DNA of 64,000 nucleotides from contig NZ_RWIT01000002.1 in assembly GCF_003944715.1 (NCBI RefSeq), forward strand, positions 248,001 through 312,000, given 5' to 3'. The position numbers and the translations under genes are program-made. Shown one piece after another: positions 28,270-61,656 of the stretch. Each line of letters starts with the position of its first letter. The first letter of the stretch is position 1. A model generated the notes under the pieces. It did no database searches. It was given only the letters and a program-made list of their open reading frames with translations, and was not told the origin of the DNA. The stretch is from Hymenobacter rigui. GTDB taxonomy: Bacteria > Bacteroidota > Bacteroidia > Cytophagales > Hymenobacteraceae.

Positions 28270-28395
28270 ATGGTAAAAGAACTAGCTGTTGCCACTGGGC
28301 TGCTGCTTAGCAGCCTAGGACTGGACACTACTTGGCGCTTAGGCGGGGCCAACATCGAAGCCAATAACGAACGGCTACAGGCCGCTGCCTCATGA
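28270..28395 (+). CDS. Very small hypothetical protein, 41 aa
   Basis: MVKELAVATGLLLSSLGLDT then WRLGGANIEANNERLQAAAS. The stop overlaps the next start (ATGA), which supports translation coupling. A hydrophobic patch near residues 6-18 could be membrane-associated. Confidence 0.45.
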   Translation: MVKELAVATGLLLSSLGLDTTWRLGGANIEANNERLQAAAS

Positions 28396-29615
28396 AAGCG
28401 CAACAACAGAATATGTTCGGCGGCAGCCGGCGGCTGCAGATGAATGAATCTATCGACCTGACTATTCGCAGTCTGCAAGCGTACGGGCCGACCCATAAGC
28501 ACTGGGCCATTGCCTGGAGCGGCGGCAAAGACAGCACGGCCACGCTTACCCTCGTTGTGTGGTTGATTGAGTCCGGTAAGATTCAGCGTCCGGAAACACT
28601 TACTGTCCTGTTTGCCGATACCCGCCTGGAAATGGTACCGCTGATGGCCGCCGCCCATGATATCATGGACAACCTGCGCGAACTGGGTATTGATGTCCGC
28701 GTCGTGATGGCGGAAATGGATCAGCGGTATTTCGTGTACCTGTTGGGCCGAGGAGTGCCCCCGCCCAACAACGGTACCCTGCGCTGGTGCACGGCTCAGA
28801 TCAAAATTGAGCCGATGGAAGCCGAGCTGCGCCAGCTTTTCGCCGAAAAAGGGAAAAAGGTGCTGATGATTACCGGCGTACGGCAGGGCGAATCGGCAAT
28901 GCGGGATGCCCGCATCGTGATGAGCTGCGGCAAGGACGGGGCTGAGTGTGGCCAGGGCTGGTATCAGGAAACCTTGCCAACGTCACTCTGCGATACATTG
29001 GCCCCGCTGCTGCATTGGCGGGTGTGCCACATCTGGGAATGGCTGCGCCACTGGGCCCCGCGTGCCGAGTACGGCGACTGGAGCACCGAGATGGTAGCCG
29101 AGGCCTACGGCGGCGACGAAGCTGAGGAAAAGAACGCCCGCACCGGCTGTATGGGGTGTCCGCTGGCCAGCAAGGATATGGCTTTGGAAAACCTCACCAA
29201 GCGGCCCCAGTGGGCCTACCTCTCCCCGCTACTGCGCCTGAAGCCGATGTACCGATGGTTGCGCGAGCCTTCTCAGCGGCTCCGGCAGCCTGGTGGTGAG
29301 AAGCGCAAGGATGGCACTTTAACTGCCAACCAGCAGCGGATGGGACCGCTCACGATGGAAGCGCGGTTATCGGCACTGGATCAGGTGTTGGCTATTCAGG
29401 CCGAAGTAAACCAGGTAGCTGAAGCCACGGGCCGGCCGCGGGTGGACATTCTCAATCCGGAGGAAGAGGCCCGCATCCGGGAGTTGATTGCCCTCAACAC
29501 CTGGCCCAACAAGTGGACTGGCGAGGAACCCCGTGCTGATATCGCGCTGGATACTATGTATTCGGATGGGTCGGTCTGGCCCATTTTCGACTTTCTTAAA
29601 TCATCTGCCGCATGA
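28392..29615 (+). CDS. PAPS-reductase/DndC-like sulfurtransferase
   Basis: 407 aa. A PP-loop SGGKDST at residues 43-49 marks the adenylating N-type ATP pyrophosphatase fold. Cysteines at C133 (LRWCTAQIK), C179, C186 and the pair C253/C256 (TGCMGCPLAS) could bind an Fe-S cluster, as in DndC. DndC inserts sulfur into the DNA backbone with DndA/IscS, DndD and DndE. Those partners are not in the window, so an orphan phage enzyme with a different sulfur task (DNA or nucleotide modification) is equally possible. The C-terminal 120 residues are an extension beyond the catalytic core. Confidence 0.85.
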   Translation: MKAQQQNMFGGSRRLQMNESIDLTIRSLQAYGPTHKHWAIAWSGGKDSTATLTLVVWLIESGKIQRPETLTVLFADTRLEMVPLMAAAHDIMDNLRELGIDVRVVMAEMDQRYFVYLLGRGVPPPNNGTLRWCTAQIKIEPMEAELRQLFAEKGKKVLMITGVRQGESAMRDARIVMSCGKDGAECGQGWYQETLPTSLCDTLAPLLHWRVCHIWEWLRHWAPRAEYGDWSTEMVAEAYGGDEAEEKNARTGCMGCPLASKDMALENLTKRPQWAYLSPLLRLKPMYRWLREPSQRLRQPGGEKRKDGTLTANQQRMGPLTMEARLSALDQVLAIQAEVNQVAEATGRPRVDILNPEEEARIRELIALNTWPNKWTGEEPRADIALDTMYSDGSVWPIFDFLKSSAA

Positions 29616-37539: not shown

Positions 37540-37787
37540 CCAAAGAAGCTACCATCGAATTTTTACAAGAGGCAGGTTTTCAGCTACCTGAGTCACATAT
37601 CGTTGTTGATGAATTAGACCGTCTCCTGCCAAACGCCGAACAATCTTTCGCAGATAGACTGGCAGTGAGCCTGCAAACGCTTAGGTCTTGTACCTCGGCA
37701 GTACAGCGAGTTGCTTACTTCTATTCGATCGGCGTGAAAAGTGGCACTGTCATTCGAGGACTATCCTTACTGATTTGGGCCAAATGA
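37536..37787 (+). CDS. Small hypothetical phage protein, 83 aa
   Basis: ATG 37536 gives MTKEATIEFLQEAGFQLPES, then a helical middle (DRLAVSLQTLRSCTSAVQRV) and a hydrophobic C-terminus (RGLSLLIWAK). It overlaps the large terminase start by 4 bp. No family recognised. Confidence 0.5.
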   Translation: MTKEATIEFLQEAGFQLPESHIVVDELDRLLPNAEQSFADRLAVSLQTLRSCTSAVQRVAYFYSIGVKSGTVIRGLSLLIWAK

Positions 37788-39304
37788 CCGCCGTATCTCC
37801 CGAAGCAAGAATCATCACCCCGCAGCCCGGCTTCCAGATGGCCGCCCTGAGCACCGCGGCCGACATTGCCATCATCGGCGGTGGTGCTGGCGGCGGGAAA
37901 ACGTATGCCCTGCTGATTGAGGCCTCTCGCCACCGGTTCAACAAGGACTTCGGGGCCGTCATCTTCCGCCGCACCTACGCCATGGTCACCAATGAGGGCG
38001 GCCTCTGGGATACCAGCAAGGACCTGTACCCGATGGTGGGTGCCAAGCAGGGCGACCTGGAATGGAAGTTTCCCAGCGGGGCCCGCGTGTCGTTTGCCCA
38101 CATGCAGCATGAGAAAAACATGTTCGACTGGCAGGGCACCCAGATACCGTTGATTGTCTTCGACGAGCTCACCCACTTCACCAGTAAGCAGTTCTGGTAC
38201 ATGCTCACCCGGAACCGCTCTATGTGCGGGGTGCGGCCATACGTGCGCTGCAGTTGCAACCCCGACCCCGACAGCTGGGTAGCGGAGTTGATTTCGTGGT
38301 GGATTGGTGAGGATGGTTTCCCTATTCCGGAGCGGGCCGGCGTGCTGCGCTACTTCACCCGCGACGGTGAGGTGATGGTATGGGGTGATACCCCTGAAGA
38401 GGTCATAGCCAAAGCGCCGCACCTGTTCCAGGCAGAGCTGGCCGCTACCCGCCCGAAGTCGCTCACCTTCATTCCGGGCAGCATCTACGAGAATAAGAAG
38501 CTGCTCGCGGTAAACCCAGAGTACTTGGCCGGCCTGATGGCGCAGGACGCCGAAACCAAAGCCCAGCTGCTGGAAGGTAACTGGAAGGTGAAGGTGGACG
38601 GCCTGGCCCTCTTTGATCCGACCCGCATCAACGACCTCTGGACCAACTACCCCGTGGTAGAAGCCCAGCCCCGGCGCTGCATTACCTGCGACGCTGCCGG
38701 CTTCGGTCAGGATAAGTGCGTCATTAAAGTCTGGGTAGGTTGGACGGTGGTCGCCATTACTGTCATCAGCAAATCCGGCTCCCGCGACATCGTAGATGCC
38801 ATTGAGCCGCTACGCCGCCGCTACAACGTGGCGCAGTCCGATACGCTCATCGACCAGGATGGTGTCGGCGGTGGCGCGGTGGCGCTGGGTGGCTACCAGG
38901 GCTTCAGCGGCGGCAGCCCGGCCCTGCCAGATCCGGAAACCGATACGAAGGAAGCGTACAAGAACCTCAAAACGCAGTGCTACTACCGTATGGCCGGCCG
39001 CGTCAACCGGGGCGAGGTCCGGATTGAAGTCACCACCGACAGTTGCCTGATTGATGATGTGCGCACCACCAAGATGAAGGTGGGCGGCGTCGTGGTTGAT
39101 ATTCGGGAGGTTATCAACCAGCATCTTAAAGCCATCAAACGGGGCAAGGATACAGCTGAGGGCAAGAAAACCATCAACTCCAAGGAAGAACAGAAGATCC
39201 TGCTTGGTGGGGCCTCCCCCGACTTTGCCGACACATTCAGCTTTCGCGAGTGGTTCGAGCTGCGGCCGACGTATCGAAAGGGCTTTATGAAAAGAATTAA
39301 CTAG
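37784..39304 (+). CDS. terL: Terminase large subunit
   Basis: 506 aa from ATG 37784. Walker A is IIGGGAGGGKTYALLIE (residues 31-47) and Walker B is IPLIVFDELTHF (D127/E128). The C-terminal nuclease region contains ITCDAAGFGQDKCVIKVWVG and LIDQDGVGGGA, which supply the metal-binding Asp residues. It packages DNA into the capsid and cuts concatemers. Its 3' end is recognisable again at 41332 and 44049, a sign of cargo inserted behind it. Confidence 0.93.
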   Translation: MTAVSPEARIITPQPGFQMAALSTAADIAIIGGGAGGGKTYALLIEASRHRFNKDFGAVIFRRTYAMVTNEGGLWDTSKDLYPMVGAKQGDLEWKFPSGARVSFAHMQHEKNMFDWQGTQIPLIVFDELTHFTSKQFWYMLTRNRSMCGVRPYVRCSCNPDPDSWVAELISWWIGEDGFPIPERAGVLRYFTRDGEVMVWGDTPEEVIAKAPHLFQAELAATRPKSLTFIPGSIYENKKLLAVNPEYLAGLMAQDAETKAQLLEGNWKVKVDGLALFDPTRINDLWTNYPVVEAQPRRCITCDAAGFGQDKCVIKVWVGWTVVAITVISKSGSRDIVDAIEPLRRRYNVAQSDTLIDQDGVGGGAVALGGYQGFSGGSPALPDPETDTKEAYKNLKTQCYYRMAGRVNRGEVRIEVTTDSCLIDDVRTTKMKVGGVVVDIREVINQHLKAIKRGKDTAEGKKTINSKEEQKILLGGASPDFADTFSFREWFELRPTYRKGFMKRIN

Positions 39305-39428: not shown

Positions 39429-41273
39429 ATGGCCCAAACCCGCGCCCTTATTTACTCATTAGATGAGTACTCAGGAGAAAATGTGCAATTTGAAAAAACG
39501 GCAGAATGGTGGGACGGCTCACCGATGACGGATGCCAAGGCAGACGGAATTATTTTCCGTAAAATTGATGGACTGTACTATAAGCGCCTTTACAATGGTC
39601 CCATCAATGCGCTTTGGTTCGGTCTGAAAGCAGATTATGACTCTGCCACAATGGGCACTGACAATACTGCTGCACTTCAGGCTCTCATCGACAGCATCCC
39701 ATTCGGTCAAGCGGTAGATATCTTTGTACCTAAAGGCGACTATTACTTCATTTCCGAAGTCGTGGTTCGCAACAAGAGCTTCCGTCTCTTCGGCGAAGGA
39801 GGGTCTTCTTTTACTGCAGCAGAGGGCAGTACTCGTTTTGTGTTTGAAGGCAACAGCCGCGGTATTCATTACACTCGCGTCCCGGTGCAAGGGGAGTATA
39901 CTACCCAAGGTCCTTTCTTCGAGAAACTGTTTATCCAGTCTCGTCAGAAGATAGCCAACACGAACTATGATGGCATGTACGTGGAGGGTCGTTGCACTAT
40001 TAAGGACTGTACGTTCCGTGGGTGGTCGGGCAATGGTCTATCAATCTATGCTGCCGTACAGGAAGGTACCGACGCATCTCTTTCAGTCGTTGACCACTGC
40101 CGCTTTGCTGAGAATACCAGCAACGGTATGAAGCTACGAGGCCCCGATGCCAACCAATGCGCCATTACGTATTGCGACAGTGTTGACAATGGTGGTGCCG
40201 GCTTCTTTGACCAGTCCTTTTTGGGTAACCAGTTTGTTGCTTGCCACGGAAACAATAATGGAGATGGCCATTACGTAGTGATTGATCCGAATGCTCGTAC
40301 TTCGTTTATCGGTTGCTACGGTGAAGGCGGTAGCCTGCAAAGCTATATTGCTCCTGAAGCTGTTGGCGCCATGGTTGTTGGTGGACTGCATGCAAATGGC
40401 TGGCGTGGCAATGCTCCTGGCAATGAATATCGCCTCTCTGGTGGCTTGATATTACAAGGCGTATTCGCGAACAACTTTGTGTTTACTCGCGGTTACCCTA
40501 ATACGCATGTTTTAGGCATCTCCAGTGACGGATTTAGCTTTCAAGCTACTAACAATACCATTCAGATGCGGGAAACAGGTGGGCAATACCCATGCGTTTC
40601 ACTGACTACGGATTACGGGGCAGCTAACCCGCTCGCATCTTTTGTAGGAGCTAATTATCCGTACGCGAAGTTGTTCGAATACCAAGGTCAGATCAAACGG
40701 CGTAGTCTCCCCATCAACAGCTTTGCTGCGGATAGAGCGTTATGGGTCGGCAATAGCGTGATTACAGCTGTTGAAAGTCTAACTACCACGCCTGATATGC
40801 TCTACAGAGCTGGTGATGAACTGTTCAACACGGCTTACCAACCGCATTTGCCCGCCGGTTGGAAATGCACTCGTGGTGGCCGAAAAGGAGCGGATAATTT
40901 CACCGTTAACATCAACACATGGGGTGGAAATGACAGCTTTGCTCTACCATCCAATGTGACCGTGCAACCAGGCGACAGTATTGTACTTACGTCTGCTCAG
41001 GGCTTCACAGTAGGCAACGATGCCACTACTCTGCATGAGTACTATGCATATGTAGTAGCAGTAGAAAATGGCATGGTGAAGCTCAACGTGTATGTTAATT
41101 CCTCCTACGTCCCTATTGCTTTCTCCTCCGTAGCCCCCCTCTTCCGAGCAACAGGTGACGGCGTAGGTACTACGGCTCAACGGCCAGACATGACTGGTAC
41201 AGAAGCTGGCTTCAAGTATTTTGCTACTGACACTAGTACATGGGCAACCTGGACGGGTACCAACTGGGTGTAA
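39429..41273 (+). CDS. Beta-helix tail-spike-like protein
   Basis: 614 aa without a signal peptide. Residues 55-100 have the pectate-lyase-3-like opening (WFGLKADYDSATMGTDNTAA, VDIFVPKGDYYFISE). Repeated short strands and turns follow over residues 110-400 (CTIKDCTFRGWSGNGLSIYA, NTSNGMKLRGPDANQCAITY), as in right-handed beta helices. The C-terminus ends TSTWATWTGTNWV. Likely a receptor-binding or depolymerase spike. Its place between terminase and portal, its lower GC and its own terminator mark it as acquired cargo. Confidence 0.8.
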   Translation: MAQTRALIYSLDEYSGENVQFEKTAEWWDGSPMTDAKADGIIFRKIDGLYYKRLYNGPINALWFGLKADYDSATMGTDNTAALQALIDSIPFGQAVDIFVPKGDYYFISEVVVRNKSFRLFGEGGSSFTAAEGSTRFVFEGNSRGIHYTRVPVQGEYTTQGPFFEKLFIQSRQKIANTNYDGMYVEGRCTIKDCTFRGWSGNGLSIYAAVQEGTDASLSVVDHCRFAENTSNGMKLRGPDANQCAITYCDSVDNGGAGFFDQSFLGNQFVACHGNNNGDGHYVVIDPNARTSFIGCYGEGGSLQSYIAPEAVGAMVVGGLHANGWRGNAPGNEYRLSGGLILQGVFANNFVFTRGYPNTHVLGISSDGFSFQATNNTIQMRETGGQYPCVSLTTDYGAANPLASFVGANYPYAKLFEYQGQIKRRSLPINSFAADRALWVGNSVITAVESLTTTPDMLYRAGDELFNTAYQPHLPAGWKCTRGGRKGADNFTVNINTWGGNDSFALPSNVTVQPGDSIVLTSAQGFTVGNDATTLHEYYAYVVAVENGMVKLNVYVNSSYVPIAFSSVAPLFRATGDGVGTTAQRPDMTGTEAGFKYFATDTSTWATWTGTNWV

Positions 41274-41294: not shown

Positions 41295-41327
41295 AAAAGG
41301 CCTCAGTAAAATACTGAGGCCTTTTTC
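41295..41327 (+). terminator. Terminator after the spike gene
   Basis: AAAAGGCCTCAGT pairs with ACTGAGGCCTTTT around AAAAT, followed by T. It insulates the spike gene from the late operon. Confidence 0.88.
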
Positions 41328-41331
41328 GTCC

Positions 41332-41390
41332 ACGAGTGGTTCGAACTGCGACCAGTGTTCCGCAAAGGCTTAACGAAGCGCAAGAATTAG
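41332..41390 (+). pseudogene. Extra copy of the terL 3' end (copy 2)
   Basis: Reads EWFELRPVFRKGLTKRKN-stop, which aligns with the last 18 codons of terL at 39247-39304 (EWFELRPTYRKGFMKRIN). The DNA differs at about a third of positions, so it comes from a related but different phage. It abuts the terminator of the spike gene. Confidence 0.85.
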
Positions 41391-41437: not shown

Positions 41438-41538
41438 ACTATGTGCTTACCTGCTGACTACTACCCACCTATTGCCGCCTGTTGAGAAAGCTCAGGCATA
41501 GCAAAATAGTACTATGTTCAACTCTAATGTACCTAGTC

Positions 41539-42975
41539 ATGCGGATCATCCTGATGATGGCCTGTGTGTTTGCTGCGATAGCAAGCCATGGGCAAAGCAT
41601 AACACGAACCCCACTCTACCAAGAGGGCTTTGACAGCGGTAGCCGTGAATGGTCTCACGTCACGATTGACGACCTAGGCTATGAAGCTTACATTAATCAG
41701 GGCAAGTATGTATGTCGTTTGCCAGAGAATAACTCAATGGGCTGGGCGTGGACTTTTGTCTCCCTCCCAGATAGAATACGACAGACAGTGGACTCTAATA
41801 GTAAAATAGATTTAGAGTTCGACTGGACTGTTACTTCTAATCGGGATGATTCACGAATCGGACTAATGTTCGACACCTACAATATACGTGATGGGTGCCC
41901 TGGAGGAGATTTTAGGGCTATCCTATTTGAAGGTGATGGAGCCACTTTGGAGACATCATTTTCACAAACCATGAATTGTAACAGAGACTTGAAATGGATA
42001 ATAGACGGAACCGATACTGAAGACAGACCGACTAACCACGTAAAAATATCCAAGGATAACTATACATGGACGGTTTATGTAAATGGTAAGAATGTGCTGG
42101 ATTTCAACTATTCAGGCAGTATGCGACTCGCTCAGCTTAATTATGGGCGTGGCACATATCTGGTTGATAATATTAGCATATACCGTAAAAATCTTTCCGT
42201 GGCACCTGTCGCATCAGCGAATCAACAAGGTGCCACTACATCAAGCTCCAATCCTCGCATTTGGATACTGCTTGCAGGGATAGACAATTATTTATACCAA
42301 ACACCTCTTAACTACACCGTTAACGATGTGAGAGCTATGTACAATTTTTGGACTAGTGCAAGCGGTGGCAGAATTCCAAGAAATCAGATTGTATTATTAG
42401 AGAATCAGGAAGCAACCGTAGACAATATTTTACGAAATGCCAACAGACTTTTTTCCCAAGCCTCGCAAAATGATATCATTATCACATTCTTATCGGGGCA
42501 CGGTGGTTATGGATCATTCGCCTCCCATGATGGAACATTAGATTATCAAAATCTGAATGTCATCATCAACCGGTCTAATGCGAGAAAAAAGCTCTGCATT
42601 ATTGATGCATGCCATTCAGGCTCCTTTTCCAGAAAAGAAGTATTGACAAGTCGGGGTGAAACACTTGATCCCGACCAATCCGTCAATCTTTTCTATGCAG
42701 CACTAAGTAGGTCAGGTGATGGTATAGCATATCTACTTGCCTGCCGAGCAAATCAATTGTCTGTAGAATCACCTGAATTACAACATGGTTTATTCACCTA
42801 TTATTTCCTGGAGGGACTTAATGGGGCGGCTGATACCGATAGAGACAACTTAATCACCATTCAAGAGATCTATAGCTATTTGGCGAGGCGCGTACCTGCT
42901 TACGAAGCCACACAAAATCCCGAGTTACAAGGCACGTATGACCCAACAATGCCATTGGCTGTGATACACAAATGA
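41539..42975 (+). CDS. Secreted caspase-family (C14) peptidase
   Basis: Start placed at ATG 41539 (in-frame ATG 41527 and TTG 41482 upstream), giving 478 aa with a signal peptide (IILMMACVFAAIASHGQS). Residues 25-215 form a beta-sandwich lectin-like or LamG-like domain (YQEGFDSGSREWSHVTIDDL, YTWTVYVNGKNVLDF). Residues 230-478 are a caspase domain: RIWILLAGIDNYLYQTPLNY, catalytic H321 (TFLSGHGGYGS) and C358 (CIIDACHSGSFSRKE). The context, low GC and its own promoter region suggest a lysogenic-conversion or host-interaction role. The target is unknown. Confidence 0.88.
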   Translation: MRIILMMACVFAAIASHGQSITRTPLYQEGFDSGSREWSHVTIDDLGYEAYINQGKYVCRLPENNSMGWAWTFVSLPDRIRQTVDSNSKIDLEFDWTVTSNRDDSRIGLMFDTYNIRDGCPGGDFRAILFEGDGATLETSFSQTMNCNRDLKWIIDGTDTEDRPTNHVKISKDNYTWTVYVNGKNVLDFNYSGSMRLAQLNYGRGTYLVDNISIYRKNLSVAPVASANQQGATTSSSNPRIWILLAGIDNYLYQTPLNYTVNDVRAMYNFWTSASGGRIPRNQIVLLENQEATVDNILRNANRLFSQASQNDIIITFLSGHGGYGSFASHDGTLDYQNLNVIINRSNARKKLCIIDACHSGSFSRKEVLTSRGETLDPDQSVNLFYAALSRSGDGIAYLLACRANQLSVESPELQHGLFTYYFLEGLNGAADTDRDNLITIQEIYSYLARRVPAYEATQNPELQGTYDPTMPLAVIHK

Positions 42976-42985
42976 TTTCCTCATC

Positions 42986-43489
42986 ATGAAAAAGTTTCGC
43001 CTACTCGTGTTACTTTTCACCTTGGTGAGCTTGCCAGGGTTTGGTCAGTGGCAGCAAGACCTTCAGCAGGCGGCTCCTGCTGTTCGTGTATTTGCTAACG
43101 CCAGTTTGAATGATATTGCTATGGCAACATTCGATCAAGGAGGGCCGGTAATCTACTATAATCCCATGTTGTGCCAACAAGCTGGAGATCTAGCCACGGC
43201 ATTCATGATGACGCATGAAGTAGGGCATCATAACCTGAACCAAGCTGTCCAGATGTCTGGCAACCCATTGGCCCAGCTATGGCTAAACATGAATCAGGAA
43301 AATGCTGCTGATGCCTTCGCCGTTGAGTTTTGGGTTGCCCGTGGCAACAAGCTTATTATTCAAAGTGGTGCTATGTTCATGTGGAATGTGAACAACATGG
43401 GCGACAGTACTCATCCTCCTTCACGCATGAGAGCCAATAACATTGCTGCAAACTATCAGCGACTTACTGGAATGTCTCTATTCCCTTAG
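42986..43489 (+). CDS. Secreted M48-like zinc metallopeptidase (mini)
   Basis: 167 aa with a signal peptide (LLVLLFTLVSLPGFGQW). HExxH is TAFMMTHEVGHHNLNQ (H77, E78, H81). The third ligand is probably E105 in NMNQENAADAFAVEFW, and DSTHPPSRMRANNI matches the M48 STHPP motif. It starts 10 bp after the caspase stop, so it belongs to one operon, and ends at a strong terminator. Two secreted proteases expressed together suggest a processing cascade or combined action on envelope proteins. Confidence 0.82.
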   Translation: MKKFRLLVLLFTLVSLPGFGQWQQDLQQAAPAVRVFANASLNDIAMATFDQGGPVIYYNPMLCQQAGDLATAFMMTHEVGHHNLNQAVQMSGNPLAQLWLNMNQENAADAFAVEFWVARGNKLIIQSGAMFMWNVNNMGDSTHPPSRMRANNIAANYQRLTGMSLFP

Positions 43490-43494
43490 TTATT

Positions 43495-43540
43495 CTGACA
43501 GAAGAAGCCCAGTCAAGTTTGGCTGGGCTTCTTCTGTCAG
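43495..43540. terminator. Terminator after the protease operon
   Basis: CTGACAGAAGAAGCCCAG and its exact complement CTGGGCTTCTTCTGTCAG form an 18-bp stem with a 10-base loop. It is T-rich on both sides and probably bidirectional. Confidence 0.85.
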
Positions 43541-43677
43541 AGTATTTGAGTAGTCAATGGCAGATATACTGAGGAATATTCGCGCTTGGCAATGTCAAAA
43601 CTGTCCGTAGTATGGCCTTGATGGCACTTAGTCCCTATCCTAGCTTTGCTCTATAACCTATCCATCCTTTCTAACTT

Positions 43678-43986
43678 ATGAAAACCAAACTGCTTTTTCT
43701 CTCCCTGGCTGTGTGCAGCCTGTTCACGACACTCCCTGCCTCTTCTGCCACTCCCGCAGCTGCGAGCAGCATCGTATTGTTTGGTGACTACCAAGATGGG
43801 TATGATAGCGGCCAGACTGTTCGGGCCTCATTGTTGTTTGATGCTGGTGGAAATCCTCACAATCAAGCCTTCTTGGCAGCTGTGCAGGATGAAGTCGATG
43901 CTGCCTACATCTACCGCCAAGGAGCTACTACCCAAGGCGACTACAACTACTGGGACGGTTATATCGCTGGTATCAGCAAGCGTTAA
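43678..43986 (+). CDS. Small secreted GY-rich protein 1
   Basis: 102 aa with a signal peptide (LLFLSLAVCSLFTTLPASSA). The mature part contains FGDYQDGYDSGQTVRAS and ends DYNYWDGYIAGISKR. The spaced Gly-Tyr/Asp-Gly motifs at both ends recur in the gene at 44557. No known family. It stands alone between two terminators, so it has its own promoter. Confidence 0.65.
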   Translation: MKTKLLFLSLAVCSLFTTLPASSATPAAASSIVLFGDYQDGYDSGQTVRASLLFDAGGNPHNQAFLAAVQDEVDAAYIYRQGATTQGDYNYWDGYIAGISKR

Positions 43987-44048: not shown

Positions 44049-44086
44049 AGTGTTCCAAAAAGGCTTTGTGAAGCGGGAAAAACTAG
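44049..44086 (+). pseudogene. Extra copy of the terL 3' end (copy 3)
   Basis: GTGTTCCAAAAAGGCTTTGT encodes VFQKGFV and continues KREK, matching PVFRKGLTKRKN of copy 2 and TYRKGFMKRIN of terL. It is shorter and frame-shifted near the end. It sits directly after a cargo terminator, as copy 2 does. Confidence 0.7.
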
Positions 44087-44394
44087 CCTTCTATAACAGG
44101 TGCGGGCGTATGTGTCTTCACCAGGTCGATTACACTACCTACCTCAAATAGTTCGCTCCGGTTCAGGCCAGCTTCCCGCTGCGCAATCGGGTGCAGCTCT
44201 GCAATGGCGTTGTAAGCCTCTTCACTGATGATGAGGTAAGCCACCTCACCCGTGGTACCCTGGCCCCGGTCACCGTCTACGCAGATCAGGTGGTCGTACT
44301 GGTTGAGCGGCTTGTACTTGAAGATGCGGATGAATGCTCGGTTGCTGGCGTAGGCATTCAAATCATCCGGGGTGCTCAGTTTCTTGGAACTCAT
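44083..44394 (-). CDS. Hypothetical protein, 103 aa, minus strand
   Basis: Unrecognised soluble protein (MSSKKLSTPDDLNAYASNRA, NQYDHLICVDGDRGQGTTGE, AYLIISEEAYNAIAELHP). It is transcribed against the late operon and overlaps the terL copy at its 3' end. GC content is closer to the phage genes than to the cargo. Confidence 0.55.
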   Translation of the reverse strand: MSSKKLSTPDDLNAYASNRAFIRIFKYKPLNQYDHLICVDGDRGQGTTGEVAYLIISEEAYNAIAELHPIAQREAGLNRSELFEVGSVIDLVKTHTPAPVIEG

Positions 44395-44556: not shown

Positions 44557-44868
44557 ATGAAACGAATTGCATATTCTCTCGCAATGGCAGCTATGCTGCT
44601 AGGTGTGGGAGCTGTAGCTGAGGCTGCTGCTGTTACCCAGACACAGATTGCTCTGCCCATCGGCTATACCCTTGGTTATAGAGATGGTCAGGGATTTGCC
44701 CAGCGCACTGGGGACAATGAAGAGGAGATGGACCGGGCGTATAACGAAGCGTACGCCAATTGGGAATACTATCAAAGCGTTGGCGAGAATGACCAAGCAG
44801 AGTTCTGGCATGGCTATGTCGATGGTTTGAACTGGATTCCTGACAGCGGCTCCCCCGTTATCCCGTAG
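44557..44868 (+). CDS. Small secreted GY-rich protein 2
   Basis: 103 aa with a signal peptide (AAMLLGVGAVAEAAAV). It shows IGYTLGYRDGQGFAQRTGDN at the mature N-terminus and EFWHGYVDGLNWIP near the end, matching FGDYQDGYDSGQTVRAS and YWDGYIAGIS of the 43678 gene. The two are probable paralogues. Acidic helical centre (NEEEMDRAYNEAYANWEY). Followed by a terminator. Role unknown. Confidence 0.65.
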   Translation: MKRIAYSLAMAAMLLGVGAVAEAAAVTQTQIALPIGYTLGYRDGQGFAQRTGDNEEEMDRAYNEAYANWEYYQSVGENDQAEFWHGYVDGLNWIPDSGSPVIP

Positions 44869-44966: not shown

Positions 44967-44997
44967 AATTATTGTATGTATTTTACATACAATAATT
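44967..44997. promoter_or_regulatory. TGTATGTA-type palindrome, site B
   Basis: AATTATTGTATGTA and TACATACAATAATT form a perfect 14-bp inverted repeat around TTT, 24 bp before the first head gene. It is the best match to sites A, C and D. Confidence 0.8.
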
Positions 44998-45020
44998 CAA
45001 CCTTATCAAAGCTGCTCGCC

Positions 45021-45659
45021 ATGGACTGCGTACGCCCTGCTTCTCTTACCGCCCCTGCCAAAGTGGACTGCGCTGTGCACTTCGGCCAAACCGTCCGGAT
45101 GGCTATTGGCCGCCGTGGTGCCATTGCTGCAGCTTTCGCAACTGCGGCTGCACTGGCTACCCAGGCTGCCTGGAATGCCGCTATTACGGCCGGCGGTGAT
45201 AATAAAGTCATTCTGACGCCGATCTACGTCAACCCGCAGATTCCGCAGTCGGAAGCTCAGTTCGCTGGTGAAAACACGAATGAGTCAGTGGGAGGCAAAG
45301 GCTTCCTGACCGGCTACAACTCGGTGAAGTACACCGCTGACTTCATCGGCCTGCCCAGCGCTGTCAAAAAGGAGCTGGCAAAGATTGAAGAGGAAAGCCG
45401 CGCCGAACTGGGTGTTGATCCGGTGGAAGCCGTGCTGATCACTCCCGACGGCCGCATCATCTACCGCGAAATCGACAGCAAGCCTGCTGGTATCCCCTTT
45501 TCCAACTTCTACCTACAGTCGGTAGGGTCGGAAGGCTTCAAGGCCCTGAACAAAAACACCTTCGGCCTTTCGCTGGATGGTAAGTGGGACGAAGATGTGG
45601 CCATTGCCCAGGCGGCCTTCGACTTGCTGAATCTGTACCCTGAAGCCGGCGGCGGTTAA
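45021..45659 (+). CDS. Phage head-module protein of unknown function, 212 aa
   Basis: Start at ATG 45021; the longer frame begins inside palindrome B. An Ala-rich helix (GRRGAIAAAFATAAALATQA) precedes a beta-alpha domain (VEAVLITPDGRIIYREIDS, FGLSLDGKWDEDVAIAQAAF). First gene after the cargo block and operator, so it heads the structural operon. No family recognised. Confidence 0.6.
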   Translation: MDCVRPASLTAPAKVDCAVHFGQTVRMAIGRRGAIAAAFATAAALATQAAWNAAITAGGDNKVILTPIYVNPQIPQSEAQFAGENTNESVGGKGFLTGYNSVKYTADFIGLPSAVKKELAKIEEESRAELGVDPVEAVLITPDGRIIYREIDSKPAGIPFSNFYLQSVGSEGFKALNKNTFGLSLDGKWDEDVAIAQAAFDLLNLYPEAGGG

Positions 45660-53908: not shown

Positions 53909-54105
53909 TCTAATAGCAGTTCACTGCTGTAACCAATCTGTACAATGGTTAATCCTATATATTAGCGCCGAAATACCTGTCCCTGCTACCTGTTGCCCTG
54001 CTTACTGCTGTTGCTCATAACAAGTTATTGTGAAGCACTGCCGTGAACAGGGCATTTGTATTGGTGTCATCACAAGTAGCTTTTCCACTTTATAGTCAAA
54101 CCTTT

Positions 54106-56403
54106 ATGACAAACCTCTCCAAACGAATTAGAGCATTTTATGCCCCATTACTGCTGATAAGCCTACTACAAGCGACCAGTAGTTTTGCACAAATCACAGC
54201 TCTGAACATTAAAGACTTTGGGGCAGTAGGTGACGGTGTTCATGATGATCATGATGCCTTCCAAGCAGCATCTTGCTCAATTAACAGTATCTACATTCAG
54301 GACCCATCCGCAAAAGTCAAACTGTATATTCCTGAAGGCACCTATATAGTAGGAAGGCAAATTCCTAAAGATGCATGTGTCAACTGTTGCGCGCCTGTAA
54401 ATTCTCAGACCCCTTATCCATGGTCAAATGATAATAACTATTATTTGAATGGAGAAGATGTGTTGCGTCTAATACGATGCTATAACGTAGAAATAGTAGG
54501 CGATGGAACAGACAAAACTCTCATTCGGTACAAAGACGGGTTGAAATATGGGTCTTTCGACCCTTTAACTGGCCAACCATCCGCTAATAAGGAAGACTCT
54601 CGTGATAATGCTGCCACCGTTGGGGCATGTATAAAAATCGATCGGTCTGAAAATATTACTATTAGAGATTTATCATTAAATGGAAATGTTACTCACGCGC
54701 AAATTGGTAATAGATGGGGTGATGACGGCATTCAGCTTCAGTACACCGGCATTATTGTAACGGAAACATCAAGAGTTAATATCGATAATGTCAGTGCTGA
54801 TTATTTCGGACAAGATGGTGTATGCATTCGAAATATCACGGGTAACATGGATATGATACATGACGAAGAGATGCGTATATCTAACTCGTCATTCAATTAC
54901 AACGTTCGTCAGGGTTTCAGCTTGCTTGGCGTGAACGGATTAACTGTATTGAACAGTAAATTCAATCATACAGGAAGAGCTATAAACACAATATCGAATA
55001 CGACTGTACCATCCAACCCAGGCTGTGGAGTTGATGTTGAACCCGAGGACTCCAATGTCGCAAACGTAAAGTTTGCTCAATGTGAGTTTATTGATAACTA
55101 CGCATTCGGTGTTGGATCTATGCGTCCACTTACCAACCCGAACCTGTCTGATACATTTATTACTACTAAGAATATTTTATTCAGCAATTGCACACTTTGG
55201 GGTGTTAAATCAGGTACAGGAACCCAATTAGCGGCCTCCGTGACGCAACGAGGTTTCAGATTTGAATACTGCAACATTTATGGGCAGTTTACCCATGGAA
55301 GTCTAGCAGACAATGCCAATGATGCCACTGCATTCTATGCCTGCACATTTGAGGATAAAAGGTATAACGGTCAACCTGCTGGTGGAGACTTTTTGGTTAA
55401 CACCGATGGCCGAGCACAGCGTATGCGTTTTGAACTCTGCTCCTTCATCTCGAATGAGCGTCAACATATCTGGGATGAAGCTCATTCACCCTATGATCCT
55501 GAGCTTGTTCCAGTGTTCAGTAGCTGTACGTTCATAAACAACAATCAGATCGCACCTATATCGTCAACTCACAATTTGTTTAACGGCGTAAAGTTCGAGG
55601 GCAATATAGGAGATATAGACAGCCCCTCCCGCTCTAATTTTGCACGCACTGAAAGAGCCTATGGGAAACGACTCATTGTACCAACTGGGTCATTTGTAAA
55701 GTTGTTTTCTTCTAACGTTAAGCACAAAGTATGGGACGCCAATTTTACAATTGGAGGTTCTGTCCCAACTACAATCGTTACAGGCTTAGAAATAGGGAGC
55801 ACAAATGCAATGTATATCACTGGTACGAAGCCTGCCGACCCTACACATCTATACATCGGCGAAAATGCCTATTTCCTTGTTAAGCAAGGTGGCGCATTAG
55901 CAATTCGCCCAAACACCGTAATCGATATTGCAGGTACCCTCGTCGTAGAAGACGGAGCTTATATTTGCATTGATCCTAGCGTACAGATAAATGTAATTGG
56001 TAATGGAAAGATATACATTGCTCCAACGGCTATAATCGGTCAATCAGCAATGCTTGATGAGTTCGATTATAAATGCACTAATACTTTCCCCGTATGTGTA
56101 GCAGGTGGTAATCCCAATGTTGTATCGAGTTGCCCCCAATCTAAACTATCATCTCCGCTTACAACACCGTCACTGAACAACACAGTTACTTATAGCAAAG
56201 CATATCCCTCACCTACCACTGGAAAAATACACTTTGATAAAGGCACTGAATTAATTGCTGTATACGATGCTAAAGGACAGGCAGTAAATGTTCATACAGT
56301 CGCAGATGGCTTCAGCTTACAACACTTGCCCAATGGCTTATACACCTTGCGGCTGTTGTACAATAATAAGTATATAACCCAGAGGATAGTTCTGGAGAAA
56401 TAA
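54106..56403 (+). CDS. T9SS-exported right-handed beta-helix protein
   Basis: 765 aa from ATG 54106 with a signal peptide (LLLISLLQATSSFAQ). It opens with the pectate_lyase_3 motif NIKDFGAVGDGVHDDHDAFQ and has many beta-helix coils (ENITIRDLSLNGNVTHAQIG, VNIDNVSADYFGQDGVCIRN). The last 75 residues are a type IX secretion sorting domain: YPSPTTGKIHFDKGTELIAV, then YDAKGQAV and LPNGLYTLRLLYNNK. The domain sends it across the outer membrane of the host bacterium. Low GC and a place between tail genes mark it as host-type cargo carried by the prophage; its action is probably polysaccharide cleavage. Confidence 0.87.
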   Translation: MTNLSKRIRAFYAPLLLISLLQATSSFAQITALNIKDFGAVGDGVHDDHDAFQAASCSINSIYIQDPSAKVKLYIPEGTYIVGRQIPKDACVNCCAPVNSQTPYPWSNDNNYYLNGEDVLRLIRCYNVEIVGDGTDKTLIRYKDGLKYGSFDPLTGQPSANKEDSRDNAATVGACIKIDRSENITIRDLSLNGNVTHAQIGNRWGDDGIQLQYTGIIVTETSRVNIDNVSADYFGQDGVCIRNITGNMDMIHDEEMRISNSSFNYNVRQGFSLLGVNGLTVLNSKFNHTGRAINTISNTTVPSNPGCGVDVEPEDSNVANVKFAQCEFIDNYAFGVGSMRPLTNPNLSDTFITTKNILFSNCTLWGVKSGTGTQLAASVTQRGFRFEYCNIYGQFTHGSLADNANDATAFYACTFEDKRYNGQPAGGDFLVNTDGRAQRMRFELCSFISNERQHIWDEAHSPYDPELVPVFSSCTFINNNQIAPISSTHNLFNGVKFEGNIGDIDSPSRSNFARTERAYGKRLIVPTGSFVKLFSSNVKHKVWDANFTIGGSVPTTIVTGLEIGSTNAMYITGTKPADPTHLYIGENAYFLVKQGGALAIRPNTVIDIAGTLVVEDGAYICIDPSVQINVIGNGKIYIAPTAIIGQSAMLDEFDYKCTNTFPVCVAGGNPNVVSSCPQSKLSSPLTTPSLNNTVTYSKAYPSPTTGKIHFDKGTELIAVYDAKGQAVNVHTVADGFSLQHLPNGLYTLRLLYNNKYITQRIVLEK

Positions 56404-56560: not shown

Positions 56561-56645
56561 GAGTGAACCGGTTCAGTATTCCGATTTATTTGACGGCTTG
56601 GGCCTTGGCTCGCAGGAACTGCTGGACTACTGGCTTAAAGCATAA
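56559..56645 (+). CDS. Tiny ORF next to palindrome C, 28 aa
   Basis: MSEPVQYSDLFDGLGLGSQE ends LLDYWLKA. Its start codon is in the palindrome, as is that of the gene downstream of site D. It converges with the 729-residue gene and overlaps its 3' end by 19 bp. It could be a fragment of a longer gene whose rest was lost or moved by recombination at the palindrome. Confidence 0.4.
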   Translation: MSEPVQYSDLFDGLGLGSQELLDYWLKA

Positions 56646-58816
56646 CACCGCAACAGCGTAAAATCAGCGGTACCACCAATGAGGTCATGCTTAAAATCCA
56701 GTATCCAGCCTTCGCGCACCTCGTTTCGCTCTGTGCGGAACCGTATACGCCCGTTGGGCCGGGAAAGGATAGCCAGCGCCTGTTGCCACGTACACGGGGC
56801 GGTGAACTGGTAAGACTCGTTACGCCACAGCGGCGGGCCCAACTCTTCGACTGATATGTCCGCCTTTTCGACAACAGCGGTTTCCCCCGGCAGACGGGTA
56901 CTCAGTTCGTTATTGCCCTCGCCAAAGCTGAAACGGATTCGCTTGCCTTGGCGACCAAACAACCCAGCAGCCAACACAGGGCTGTGCCGACGTAGCACCC
57001 GCGCTGGTGACAACCGCAGGTTATAGGCGGTATCGGGTGAAAGTAGCCCCGTTACATCGGCGAACAGCTGGTTTCGCTCGGTCTGGAAGCCGCCCAACGG
57101 ATGGCGTAACAGACACACTAAAAAGTTGTCGTTGTCGGCTTGGTCATCGGTGGTTGCCGTTGCTTCATAACGCTGCCGCCGGGTATTCTCCAGATACAAT
57201 CCGGCGGTGATATAGCCGCCTACGGCAGTGTAGGTAGCCTGTACCTGTGTCAAGGGCAATGCCCATTCCCGGCGCGTGTTGAACTCGTCCAGCCCGTTCA
57301 GGTTCTGCACCTGCCACTTCTGCCAACCCGCTTCCGCCTGGTTATAATAGCGGTCTGCTATAACGTGCTGTTCAAAGTTGCTGAACGCCACCCCGTCTAT
57401 ATCGGGTAAATGATCCTGCACCGGCGCGGCCAGCGTCAGTACCACCGCATCGGAGTAGAAGTAGCTAGCCTGTTCCACTCGCACCACCTCGGTACCACCG
57501 GGCAGCCGTTCGATGCCATAGCCCAGCCAGTGCGCCGCGCTTAGGGAGTCGAACAGCCCTTGCCAAGTAGCATAGATTGATTTCAGCGCGAGGGGAAATC
57601 CGCGCACCTGAAAACCACCGGTAACCATCGTCAGACTACCCGCCCCATCAGCGGGGTACGCCGGGCGGGTGTCGGTACGGCCGAAGTAGGCGGAACGAAA
57701 CGCTACCGGGCTATCTGTGGCCGCTTGTGCGAGCCGGTCAAATGCCTCATACACCAGTAGCCCAGCCGCCGGGGTTGGGTCGGTCTGGGTAAGCGCCTCC
57801 ATCTTGAAATAGGAGCCCTGTTGCATTTCTATGTATGTGGTGAACTGGTACGGGCCAATCAATGGCCCGCTGATATCGTACACATGCAGGCGGCCATACA
57901 GATACACCTGGTCACCGATGTTCAGGTTGCGAGTGACACGGTAGGCGGCGGTCAGCTGCTTGCGGAACTCACCGGCAATGCCGCTGTCGCGGAACTCAAA
58001 CAGCTTAACTGGCGGCTCACTGTTGATACGGAAATACACCTCCCCATCTGCTTTATCGAAGTCACCTTTCCCGTTCTGCCGCTGAATCCGCAGCAGGGCC
58101 AACACAGTAAAATCAATACTGAACAGCCCCTTTTCTTTGGTCACGTACACCGGCACCTCTGGGTTGGTATCCGGCATGGTGATGGTACCCGCGTAGGTTT
58201 CCTGTACGCCGAACTCATCTACCACGGCTGAGCCAAACCCAAAGTACATCACCTTAAAGCGGCTGTTACCGTCGGTCACGTAGTCGGGCAAAGGGGGCGG
58301 TGGGCTGGCGGACGTTTCCGCCTCATACCGTTGCCGGATAGCTTTGCTGTGCAGTTCTACCGTGGTTGGGGTAAATGGAGCTAACGCACTACCGCCCACC
58401 GACTCGCGCCCGAGCAAGTCCACCGTGATGTTTTCGCGGTTCAGGAACTTGATGGTGAAACCCGGCTTTTCCACAGTACACCGAAACTCGGTTGCCGTGC
58501 TGCTTGCCCCGGCAAAGTCAAGGCGGCCTCGGTAATACACTTCCCAGGTAAACGCGTTGGGGTCATACACCTCAATCAATACTGCCACTTCTGCTTCTAT
58601 GCCGGCTATTTCCAGCGCCTGCAACAAATACGCCCGGCCCTCTTTTACAAAGCCCAGTTCGACCGTGTACTCGGTTGTGAGACCGTGGTACTTTCCGTCG
58701 CGGTGCAGTTGAACCCCTATTTCTTCCCAGCCCACAGGATCAGCAGATTGCCGCTGGGGACCGAACAGGTCGCTTAATAGGGTAAAGCGAAGTTGAGGGG
58801 CGTTTTGCTCTATCAT
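56627..58816 (-). CDS. Probable phage tail/baseplate protein, 729 aa, inverted
   Basis: Large beta-rich protein (GVQLHRDGKYHGLTTEYTVE, RGRLDFAGASSTATEFRCTV, EKPGFTIKFLNRENITVDLL) with no signal peptide or membrane segments and a lectin-like middle. I recall proteins with this N-terminus in tail regions of Bacteroidota prophages, but cannot name a family. GC matches the phage head genes, not the cargo. It points against the rest of the late operon, and palindromes C and D border it. The ATG is inside palindrome D. Confidence 0.65.
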   Translation of the reverse strand: MIEQNAPQLRFTLLSDLFGPQRQSADPVGWEEIGVQLHRDGKYHGLTTEYTVELGFVKEGRAYLLQALEIAGIEAEVAVLIEVYDPNAFTWEVYYRGRLDFAGASSTATEFRCTVEKPGFTIKFLNRENITVDLLGRESVGGSALAPFTPTTVELHSKAIRQRYEAETSASPPPPLPDYVTDGNSRFKVMYFGFGSAVVDEFGVQETYAGTITMPDTNPEVPVYVTKEKGLFSIDFTVLALLRIQRQNGKGDFDKADGEVYFRINSEPPVKLFEFRDSGIAGEFRKQLTAAYRVTRNLNIGDQVYLYGRLHVYDISGPLIGPYQFTTYIEMQQGSYFKMEALTQTDPTPAAGLLVYEAFDRLAQAATDSPVAFRSAYFGRTDTRPAYPADGAGSLTMVTGGFQVRGFPLALKSIYATWQGLFDSLSAAHWLGYGIERLPGGTEVVRVEQASYFYSDAVVLTLAAPVQDHLPDIDGVAFSNFEQHVIADRYYNQAEAGWQKWQVQNLNGLDEFNTRREWALPLTQVQATYTAVGGYITAGLYLENTRRQRYEATATTDDQADNDNFLVCLLRHPLGGFQTERNQLFADVTGLLSPDTAYNLRLSPARVLRRHSPVLAAGLFGRQGKRIRFSFGEGNNELSTRLPGETAVVEKADISVEELGPPLWRNESYQFTAPCTWQQALAILSRPNGRIRFRTERNEVREGWILDFKHDLIGGTADFTLLRCYALSQ

Positions 58817-61010: not shown

Positions 61011-61035
61011 AGGGACAATATTTATCTAGGCGATT

Positions 61036-61656
61036 TTATACTAAAGGTGGCATGCAGGCGCGCAAAAATTCATACCCGAACACTGTCGGACATACCTTAA
61101 ATGTCGGAGAAGGTATAGGGGAAAGCCCACCATCAAACTTGGAATTTTTGTAAGTGGAAGGAGTACATAGTCGCAGCCTCAATAAAGTCTCCACTGATAG
61201 CGATACCTGTGTAGGGCTTAGCTGTAGTGCTGCTGGGAACTCCTGCGTGTACACAGGGGCTTGCTCCCAGTCCAGTATGCTTCTATCGTCTGGCCGCGCC
61301 TTCGTGTATAGGTGTTCCAATACCTGTGCGTCTATTGAGCTTAACTGGCGTAGCACTTCCACATAGCTGGCCGTAACCGCAATCTGCTTTTCTGGGTCGG
61401 CCGCATTCGCTAAGAGGGCCGCCCATTTGGCTGCCAATGTTTCGTCTATTTCGAGAGCGGCAGCCTGAACAAGAGGCACTAATACGTTGGGCGCAACGGG
61501 AGCTGCTTCACGGCCTACATTCGCAAGATAGCGGTATGCTGCCGCTCCTAAATGTTGCGCGCGCTCCAAGGCTGCTTTGCCATAGTGCTCCGCAGCGGGG
61601 CCTATGAACTTGGTAAGTGCAGCACCTTCAAGTAAAGTGATAAGATCGGAAGCCAT
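61036..61656 (-). CDS. Abi-alpha/DUF4393-like protein
   Basis: 206 aa. It has the DUF4393 pattern: N-terminal helix (LIGPAAEHYGKAALERAQHL-like, residues 16-35), NVLVPLVQAAALEIDETLAA then KWAALLANAADPEKQIAVTA, and LRQLSSIDAQVLEHLYTKA. The family was named Abi-alpha for links to phage abortive infection. Its role is inferred here. Co-transcribed with the KAP ATPase. Confidence 0.8.
   Translation of the reverse strand: MASDLITLLEGAALTKFIGPAAEHYGKAALERAQHLGAAAYRYLANVGREAAPVAPNVLVPLVQAAALEIDETLAAKWAALLANAADPEKQIAVTASYVEVLRQLSSIDAQVLEHLYTKARPDDRSILDWEQAPVYTQEFPAALQLSPTQVSLSVETLLRLRLCTPSTYKNSKFDGGLSPIPSPTFKVCPTVFGYEFLRACMPPLV

What the first reader, a model, noticed from the sequence alone, without database searches (positions are those of the whole stretch)
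41482..43540. Prophage-borne operon of a secreted caspase and a mini M48-like protease
A signal-peptide caspase with intact His321/Cys358 and a lectin-like domain is followed after 10 bp by a small secreted HExxH protein with a STHPP motif. They share one terminator and sit in low-GC cargo between terminase and head genes. Caspase-like proteins in bacteria are mostly cytoplasmic, in defence or cell death. An exported pair carried by a phage is unusual and could be a protease cascade, a toxin or a host-colonisation factor.
Basis: partly seen in the sequence, partly recalled or inferred. Interest (0 to 1): 0.8.

Follow-up and report, generated by a model that had tools for sequence, protein, structure and literature searches.

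The report
Prophage cargo: exported caspase plus metalloprotease
A virus integrated in a Bacteroidota bacterium carries two genes for proteases that the cell probably exports, in a spot where related viruses carry nothing or other cargo, some of it anti-virus genes, so the pair more likely serves the host cell than the virus particle.

Summary
Window 41482-42975 encodes an intact C14 caspase (H340/C377 from TTG; 321/358 from ATG 41539); 10 bp on, 42986-43489 encodes a 167-aa M48-like HExxH protein. Both have signal-peptide-like N-termini and lie in a 5.67-kb low-GC insert between terL and the head gene.

The reading is partly right. In ten related prophages or phage contigs this slot is empty in six and holds other genes in four: Abi_alpha, a KAP NTPase, a CHAP protein, or a small exported-looking protein plus a 104-aa one. 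So it is a moron slot that partly holds defence-type genes. A 58-nt fossil of the terL 3' end before the caspase suggests that the unit once sat directly behind terL.

Two arguments weaken: export looks usual in this Bacteroidota caspase clade (71 of 80 genome loci), and the pair was found nowhere else. The caspase keeps metacaspase S1 acidic positions (Lys/Arg specificity predicted) and an EF-hand-like loop (42 of 46 aligned members). The 'lectin' domain is unproven.

Best reading: lysogenic-conversion cargo, exported proteases acting in the envelope, probably against superinfecting phages. Function untested.

The parts
41482..42975 (+). caspase-family (C14) protease gene, 497 aa from TTG; probable start ATG 41539 (478 aa) with signal-peptide-like N-terminus
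41599..42240 (+). N-terminal region (residues 40-253), predicted all-beta at low confidence, no confident family; weak Laminin_G_3 similarity
   Evidence: E 0.061; pLDDT 37; own genome only, 1 of 231
42265..42972 (+). caspase domain with H340, C377, acidic S1 positions D282/D375, EF-hand-like loop 451-462
42986..43489 (+). M48-like mini-metalloprotease with signal-peptide-like N-terminus, 167 aa; H77ExxH81, E105, STHPP
43491..43544 (.). inverted repeat (26-nt arms, 92% complementary) after the unit; terminator-like but not listed by the terminator scan
41333..41390 (+). fossil copy of the terL 3' end (71% to 39247-39304), in front of the caspase unit
39429..41273 (+). beta-helix (tail-spike-like) gene, a separate cargo gene of the same slot
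   Evidence: no match in the other loci compared
43678..43986 (+). small protein (102 aa) with signal-peptide-like N-terminus, cargo
44083..44394 (-). cargo protein, 103 aa; homologue (75%) in the slot of G114
44557..44868 (+). small protein (103 aa) with signal-peptide-like N-terminus; homologue (74-77%) in the slot of G114
37688..39304 (+). terminase large subunit, left border of the slot
44976..45659 (+). major head protein, right border of the slot

Best explanation
The two genes form a prophage moron (lysogenic-conversion cargo) in a variable slot between terL and the head gene. SHOWN: intact genes, domains, catalytic residues, the slot and its variable content. INFERRED: both proteins are exported by Sec into the periplasm or beyond. 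The caspase is a metacaspase-type enzyme that cuts after Lys/Arg and is helped by Ca2+ through an EF-hand-like loop, so it would be quiet in the cytoplasm and active outside. The M48-like enzyme is a second, zinc-dependent envelope protease. MOST LIKELY FUNCTION (inferred from the company kept in the slot): the pair serves the lysogen by acting on surface or periplasmic proteins, most likely incoming phage proteins or their receptors, that is superinfection exclusion or envelope-level defence. A caspase-to-M48 activation cascade is possible but nothing tested supports it.
For: Slot: of 11 prophages or contigs (window included), 6 are empty (-49 to 110 bp) and 5 filled with different genes, including Abi_alpha (6.3e-24) and KAP_NTPase (6e-12). 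The same two families also lie next to each other at 59496-61656 in this window. Abi-alpha of an Enterococcus faecalis prophage causes abortive infection (PMC6356687, abstract and passages); a link of KAP NTPases to phage exclusion is recalled, from no call. A moron between the terminase genes of a Pseudomonas phage, Tab, is an anti-phage gene (PMC10884400, passages). Export: four slot proteins have 10-mer hydrophobic maxima of 2.44-2.97; the other 22 proteins tested have at most 1.95. Specificity and Ca2+: D282 and D375 in 46 of 46, S338 in 43 of 46, EF-hand-like loop in 42 of 46 rows (window included; shuffle rate 0.17%); pocket residues of TbMCA2 and AtMC4 from PMC4357240 and PMC7206013 (passages). 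Fold: AtMC4 Z 24.7, rmsd 2.4, 209 aligned.
Against: No other slot has a caspase or M48 gene. PADLOC matches only the generic caspase profile (8e-15) and capP weakly (2.5e-4) among five slot proteins. The slot also holds a CHAP protein, small exported-looking proteins and a tail-spike-like gene, so it is not purely a defence slot. The hydrophobicity test can miss: the protein at 54043-56403, which has a type IX sorting domain and should be exported, scored only 1.87. D375 and C377 were part of the search pattern that gave the 45 relatives, so their invariance there is built in. No phage challenge, secretion or activity data exist.
Confidence: 0.4

Rival explanations
1. Lysogenic-conversion factor aimed outward: the exported proteases help the host against competitors or predators or in protein nutrition, not against phages.
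For: Four slot products look exported. Export looks normal in this caspase clade, whose best 80 genome relatives are mainly Saprospiraceae and Chitinophagales; whether any of those lie in prophages was not tested. PMC3501461 suggests fratricidal or surface roles for extracellular metacaspases (passages). A beta-helix protein with a type IX sorting domain lies in the same stretch.
Against: No delivery signal recognised; no type IX sorting domain in either protease (Pfam); two of the four other filled slots hold defence-type families.
Confidence: 0.3
2. Passenger genes: the unit was picked up by chance from a low-GC donor and has no selected role in this phage; the adjacency of caspase and M48 is accidental.
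For: Pair found only once; low GC3; long caspase branch without a supported sister; the slot also collects unrelated genes.
Against: Both frames are intact with all catalytic and pocket residues; tight 10-bp spacing and one hairpin at the end; both look exported.
Confidence: 0.2
3. Phage-cycle proteins: the two proteases take part in lysis, release or virion maturation.
For: Position in the late structural cluster on the coding strand, next to terL and head genes; phages do use proteases (recalled); phrog_87 'metallo-protease' weakly matched (5e-5).
Against: Absent from this slot in all ten related prophages or contigs, which keep terL, head and portal; base composition unlike the phage core; signal peptides do not fit prohead proteases (recalled).
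Confidence: 0.1

Closest known systems
Exported bacterial metacaspases/orthocaspases of Bacteroidota (Peptidase_C14, PF00656)
   Same: Same C14 domain (32-41% identity), H/C dyad, acidic S1 positions, EF-hand-like loop, hydrophobic N-terminus
   Different: The relatives read have other N-terminal parts (MORN- or TPR-like by eye, not scanned); this one has an orphan N-terminal region and lies in a prophage
M48-like secreted metalloproteases of the same taxonomic family (207-217 aa, L038-L040) and genus (294-323 aa, L032-L034)
   Same: HExxH, downstream E, for the long forms also a THP motif; signal-peptide-like N-termini by eye
   Different: 25-32% identity, longer, no caspase ORF nearby (1.5 to about 6 kb)
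Tab, anti-phage moron of Pseudomonas phage JBD26 (PMC10884400)
   Same: Accessory gene inserted beside terminase genes in the late cluster
   Different: Tab is an 83-residue protein that blocks tail assembly; here two exported-looking proteases, function untested
Abi-alpha (PF14337) of prophage 6 of Enterococcus faecalis V583 (PMC6356687)
   Same: Its family occupies the homologous slot in G107 and also occurs in this window
   Different: A different family (PF14337); no protease domain was found in the two members scanned
Nuclease-protease pairs in antiviral immunity (PMC12799240; only title and start of abstract seen)
   Same: Idea of a protease that activates a partner encoded with it
   Different: Trypsin-like protease plus nuclease, not two exported proteases

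Membership tests
Caspase/metacaspase family C14 (PF00656) | profile match over cut-off | tested here: met
   57.8 bits, cut-off 21.4
Caspase/metacaspase family C14 (PF00656) | His/Cys catalytic dyad (SGHG, DxCxxG) | tested here: met
   H340, C377
Caspase/metacaspase family C14 (PF00656) | clan CD fold | tested here: met
   AlphaFold caspase domain mostly pLDDT above 80; AtMC4 6w8r_B Z 24.7, rmsd 2.4, 209 aligned
Metacaspase-type Lys/Arg specificity | acidic S1 residues equivalent to TbMCA2 Asp95/Asp211, AtMC4 Asp137 | tested here: met
   By alignment D282 and D375 (papers); the activity itself not tested
Metacaspase-type Lys/Arg specificity | cleavage after Lys/Arg, Ca2+ dependence | not testable with these tools
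   needs enzyme assays; EF-hand-like loop in 42 of 46 rows is suggestive only
Peptidase family M48 (PF01435) | profile match over cut-off | tested here: met
   26.4 bits, cut-off 20.3, but only profile positions 130-183 of 186 matched
Peptidase family M48 (PF01435) | HExxH and downstream Glu ligand | tested here: met
   H77, E78, H81, E105 invariant in 8 rows
Carbohydrate-binding (LamG/concanavalin-like) domain | profile or fold match | tested here: inconclusive
   Laminin_G_3 E 0.061, 13.9 bits against 27.6; model pLDDT 37, so no fold search was made with it
Type IX secretion substrate | C-terminal sorting domain | tested here: not met
   no Por_Secre_tail match in either protein at E 0.1
Phage moron | insert absent from the same place in relatives | tested here: met
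   of ten relatives 6 slots empty, 4 with other genes
Phage moron | foreign base composition | tested here: met
   GC3 0.40 and 0.49 against 0.76-0.77 for terL and portal
Phage moron | own promoter and terminator | tested here: inconclusive
   hairpins on both sides; promoter-like sites 14 found, 9.8 (sd 3.6) expected
Known anti-phage system with caspase or CapP (PADLOC) | known partner genes of such a system | tested here: inconclusive
   five slot proteins scanned: generic caspase 8e-15 and weak capP 2.5e-4, nothing else; system definitions themselves not checked
Anti-phage defence | protection in a phage challenge | not testable with these tools
   needs plaque assays

The most novel reading that the evidence does not exclude
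A phage-borne, envelope-located, Ca2+-gated protease cascade: the exported metacaspase is silent in the cytoplasm, is switched on outside by Ca2+ (or by an injecting phage disturbing the envelope), and together with the M48-like partner destroys receptor or injection proteins. It would be a first extracytoplasmic caspase-based anti-phage module.
Probability: 0.1. Interest if true: 0.85.

Novelty: new variant of a known kind. Interest (0 to 1): 0.5.

Why it matters
Caspase homologues in bacteria are discussed mainly as death or defence effectors inside the cell (recalled), yet a large Bacteroidota clade looks exported and I know of no shown role for it. A phage that keeps one of these enzymes, with an exported-looking metalloprotease, in a slot that in relatives holds an abortive-infection gene makes the question testable: does an exported caspase protect against phages? 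The slot itself is a practical place to look for new defence or conversion genes.

Tried and rejected
Rejected or weakened: (1) 'Bacterial caspases are mostly cytoplasmic, so export is odd': in this clade export looks usual. (2) Pair as a conserved operon: no HExxH ORF of 100 aa or more and no M48-profile match beside any of the 29 non-own caspase loci that I took (1.5-kb flanks; one search listed more places than loci). No M48-profile match at E up to 10 in 84 non-own caspase loci (80 genome contigs, 4 viral; 4- or 6-kb flanks, some cut by contig ends); 7 of these 84 have some HExxH-containing ORF within 1.5 kb, none of it M48-like by that profile. No caspase within about 6 kb of three M48-like genes of the same taxonomic family. 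M48-like matches: 5 of 198, 1 of 395 and 7 of 390 genomes, own included each time. (3) Phage or plasmid relatives: none for either protein in phages at 1e-5; at E up to 1, three weak caspase hits and one weak ImmA/IrrE hit. Plasmids: caspase domain in 44 records, none covering 80% of the query; M48 none at 0.01. Among viral contigs, either gene as a close copy occurs only in this prophage's own contig; a looser caspase pattern gave four more, 22-29% identical, so phage-contig caspases are not unique to it. (4) Lectin domain: not established. The N-terminal region was found only in the own genome among 231, but one search shows one weak match to residues 16-93 (E 8.7e-4, 26%) in a genus mate, G003. 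(5) Donor lineage: the tree gave a long branch (2.5) and no supported sister. (6) T9SS export: no sorting domain.

Dropped rows: of the 80 terL loci only those with a recognisable head or portal gene entered the slot count; L066 and L067 (portal 25-26%, terL 29-34%) were left out as too distant; L070/L049 and L069/L150 were taken as the same prophages as G077 and G071 (inferred from like identities and gaps). The G894 gap is between tblastn match ends, not ORF ends. Alignment A5 used 45 of the 80 genome-contig loci, my own choice of spread. In one search the position-by-position identities of the terL fossil (0.20-0.29) were out of register and are not used; the repeat search gives 71%.

Weak points of method: signal peptides judged by hydrophobicity only, with ORF starts taken as the first start codon; the search for related loci works by short patterns, so absence from viral contigs shows little.

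Literature: the listings showed me no title on a phage-borne exported caspase (rested on a guess that the genus is Hymenobacter, which no call confirms). PMC3501461 (passages) mentions phage-related metacaspase operons in Clostridium botulinum and proteolysis domains in 23 of 217 metacaspase operons, so neither a phage-linked caspase nor a caspase beside another protease is new as such.

Full report
1. Observation. Window 41482-42975 (+) is an open frame of 497 codons from TTG, and 42986-43489 (+) one of 167 codons, with 10 bp between stop and ATG. The first matches Peptidase_C14 at 1.6e-15 over residues 262-483; the second matches Peptidase_M48 at 7e-6. From ATG 41539 the N-terminus is a plausible signal peptide, as is that of the second protein (hydrophobicity only). 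A hairpin with 26-nt arms follows the second gene (43491-43544); the terminator scan does not list it. A perfect 14-bp hairpin with a T run lies before the unit, at about 41295-41326 (read directly; also not listed). Each gene has one copy in the genome.

2. Place. terL ends at 39304 and the major head gene starts at 44976; portal and further structural genes follow. The 5.67 kb between hold six likely genes: a beta-helix protein, the caspase, the M48-like protein, a 102-aa protein, a 103-aa protein on the minus strand, and another 103-aa protein. Their GC3 is 0.48, 0.40, 0.49, 0.53, 0.59 and 0.51, against 0.76 and 0.77 for terL and portal and 0.64 for head.

3. Comparison of the slot. The portal was found in 9 of 120 genomes of the genus and 10 of 204 of the family, own included, and at 2 and 5 viral loci; terL is widespread. 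In relatives with portal identity of about 49% or more, or terL of 57%, the terL-head gap is: G077 70 bp, G056 86 bp, G071 110 bp, L148 78 bp, L149 -49 bp (called ORFs overlap), G894 about 59 bp (match ends), all empty; G107 1379 bp, G093 1795 bp, G114 916 bp, L071 689 bp and this window 5672 bp, all filled. That is 6 empty and 5 filled of 11. Contents: G107 Abi_alpha (PF14337, 6.3e-24) plus a 129-aa protein without a Pfam match; G093 KAP_NTPase (PF07693, 6e-12); L071 a CHAP-domain protein (1.1e-7); G114 a small exported-looking protein 74% identical to the product of 44557-44868 and a homologue (75%) of that of 44083-44394. None holds a caspase or an M48 gene. The slot is therefore a true cargo site, and two of the four other filled slots hold families linked to phage exclusion (Abi-alpha by PMC6356687; KAP recalled). 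The window itself carries a KAP NTPase gene and an Abi_alpha gene next to each other at 59496-61656.

4. History of the insert. Between the beta-helix gene and the caspase lies a 58-nt copy of the terL 3' end (41333-41390, 71% identical to 39247-39304). In frame it reads like the terL C-terminus of relatives and, by eye, is closer to that of G077 than to this phage's own. The simplest history is that the caspase unit sat directly behind terL and that the beta-helix gene came later together with a foreign terL end.

5. The caspase. The AlphaFold model is good for most of the caspase domain (blocks of residues 261-380 and 431-497 at pLDDT 82 or more) and poor for residues 35-254. The best structural match is Arabidopsis metacaspase 4 (Z 24.7, rmsd 2.4, 209 aligned); legumains and caspases follow within a few Z. 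In 46 aligned members (window plus 45 of the 80 genome loci) D282 and D375 are invariant and S338 is kept in 43. These align with S1 residues named for TbMCA2 (Asp95, Asp211; PMC4357240, passages) and AtMC4 (Asp137, Ser84; PMC7206013, passage), which predicts cutting after Lys/Arg. D375 and C377 were part of the search pattern, so their invariance is built in; D282 was not. An EF-hand-like loop (D-x-[DNS]-x-[DNS]-xx-[ILV]-xxx-E) sits at 451-462 and is present in 42 of 46 rows against 0.17% of shuffles; Pfam sees it only weakly here (EF-hand_6, 0.028, below cut-off). That Ca2+ outside the cell activates the enzyme is my inference.

6. Relatives of the caspase. In 198 related genomes 57 (own included) have a match, mostly to the domain only, best 36-38%. 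In genome contigs (84,980 species) 341 relatives were confirmed; the best 80 are mainly Saprospiraceae and Chitinophagales, 31-40% identical. Of these 80, 71 caspase ORFs have a hydrophobic N-terminus (73 of 85 with the five viral loci, this one included). Export thus looks normal for the clade. The N-terminal region was found in the own genome only among 231 of the order; one search adds one weak match (E 8.7e-4, residues 16-93) in G003.

7. The M48-like protein. Relatives at 25-32% identity occur as 207-217-aa solo genes in another genus of the family and as longer forms in the genus. All eight aligned share HExxH and a downstream E; the window's STHPP has counterparts (THP) in the long forms. 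Own included, 5 of 198, 1 of 395 and 7 of 390 genomes have a match.

8. Is it a pair? No second case was found. Seven of 84 other caspase loci have an HExxH-containing ORF within 1.5 kb, but none matches the M48 profile. Co-location in one short unit with a common end is the only evidence that they work together.

9. Function. Shown: an intact protease pair, a cargo slot, foreign composition. Inferred: export (four slot products score 2.44-2.97 on the N-terminal hydrophobicity test, the other 22 proteins tested at most 1.95; the test missed one protein with a type IX sorting domain), Lys/Arg specificity, a Ca2+ effect, and a role for the lysogen. I favour envelope-level phage exclusion because of the neighbours in the slot and because Abi-alpha and a terminase-linked moron are anti-phage genes elsewhere (PMC6356687; PMC10884400). 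An outward role, a mere passenger status and a role in the phage cycle remain open, in that order.

10. Novelty. Exported bacterial caspases, M48 enzymes and morons are each known; phage-related metacaspase operons, and metacaspase operons with other proteolysis domains, were noted in 2012 (PMC3501461, passages). The combination, an exported-looking metacaspase and metalloprotease in a prophage slot shared with an abortive-infection gene, was not met in the listings. I rate it a new variant of a known kind.

Noticed in passing
window 59496-61656 (-): KAP_NTPase gene (1.8e-6) next to an Abi_alpha gene (7.8e-22), a possible defence pair in the same stretch; the same families fill the terL-head slot of two relatives.
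   Followed up: partly
window 54043-56403 (+): 786-aa pectate-lyase/beta-helix protein with a type IX secretion sorting domain (PF18962, 1.7e-6), GC3 0.365, after the structural genes.
   Followed up: no
window 56627-58816 (-) and L251 5941-8130 (+): Two copies (76% identical) of a virion structural gene in opposite orientation about 17 kb apart; the stretches of four relatives fetched show one + copy each. Duplication, inversion or a second prophage piece.
   Followed up: partly
L247 4027-5803 (G077): Three structural genes are inverted in this relative with a partial copy of one of them in + orientation, as in an invertible module.
   Followed up: no
window 41333-41390: Fossil of the terL 3' end, probably left behind by the arrival of the beta-helix gene; suggests stepwise cargo insertion at the terL end.
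   Followed up: partly
window 28392-29615 (+): PAPS-reductase-like gene with a very strong phage family match (phrog_12882, 8e-197), found in 3 of the 8 relatives' stretches compared (75-90%).
   Followed up: no
window 43678-43986 and 44557-44868: Two small exported-looking proteins that look alike by eye (GYxxG and WxGY motifs); the second has relatives in 3 of 119 other genomes of the genus.
   Followed up: partly
L055/L241 (G071), L240 (G894): Portal genes of two related prophages carry one stop codon each, so these prophages may be decaying.
   Followed up: no
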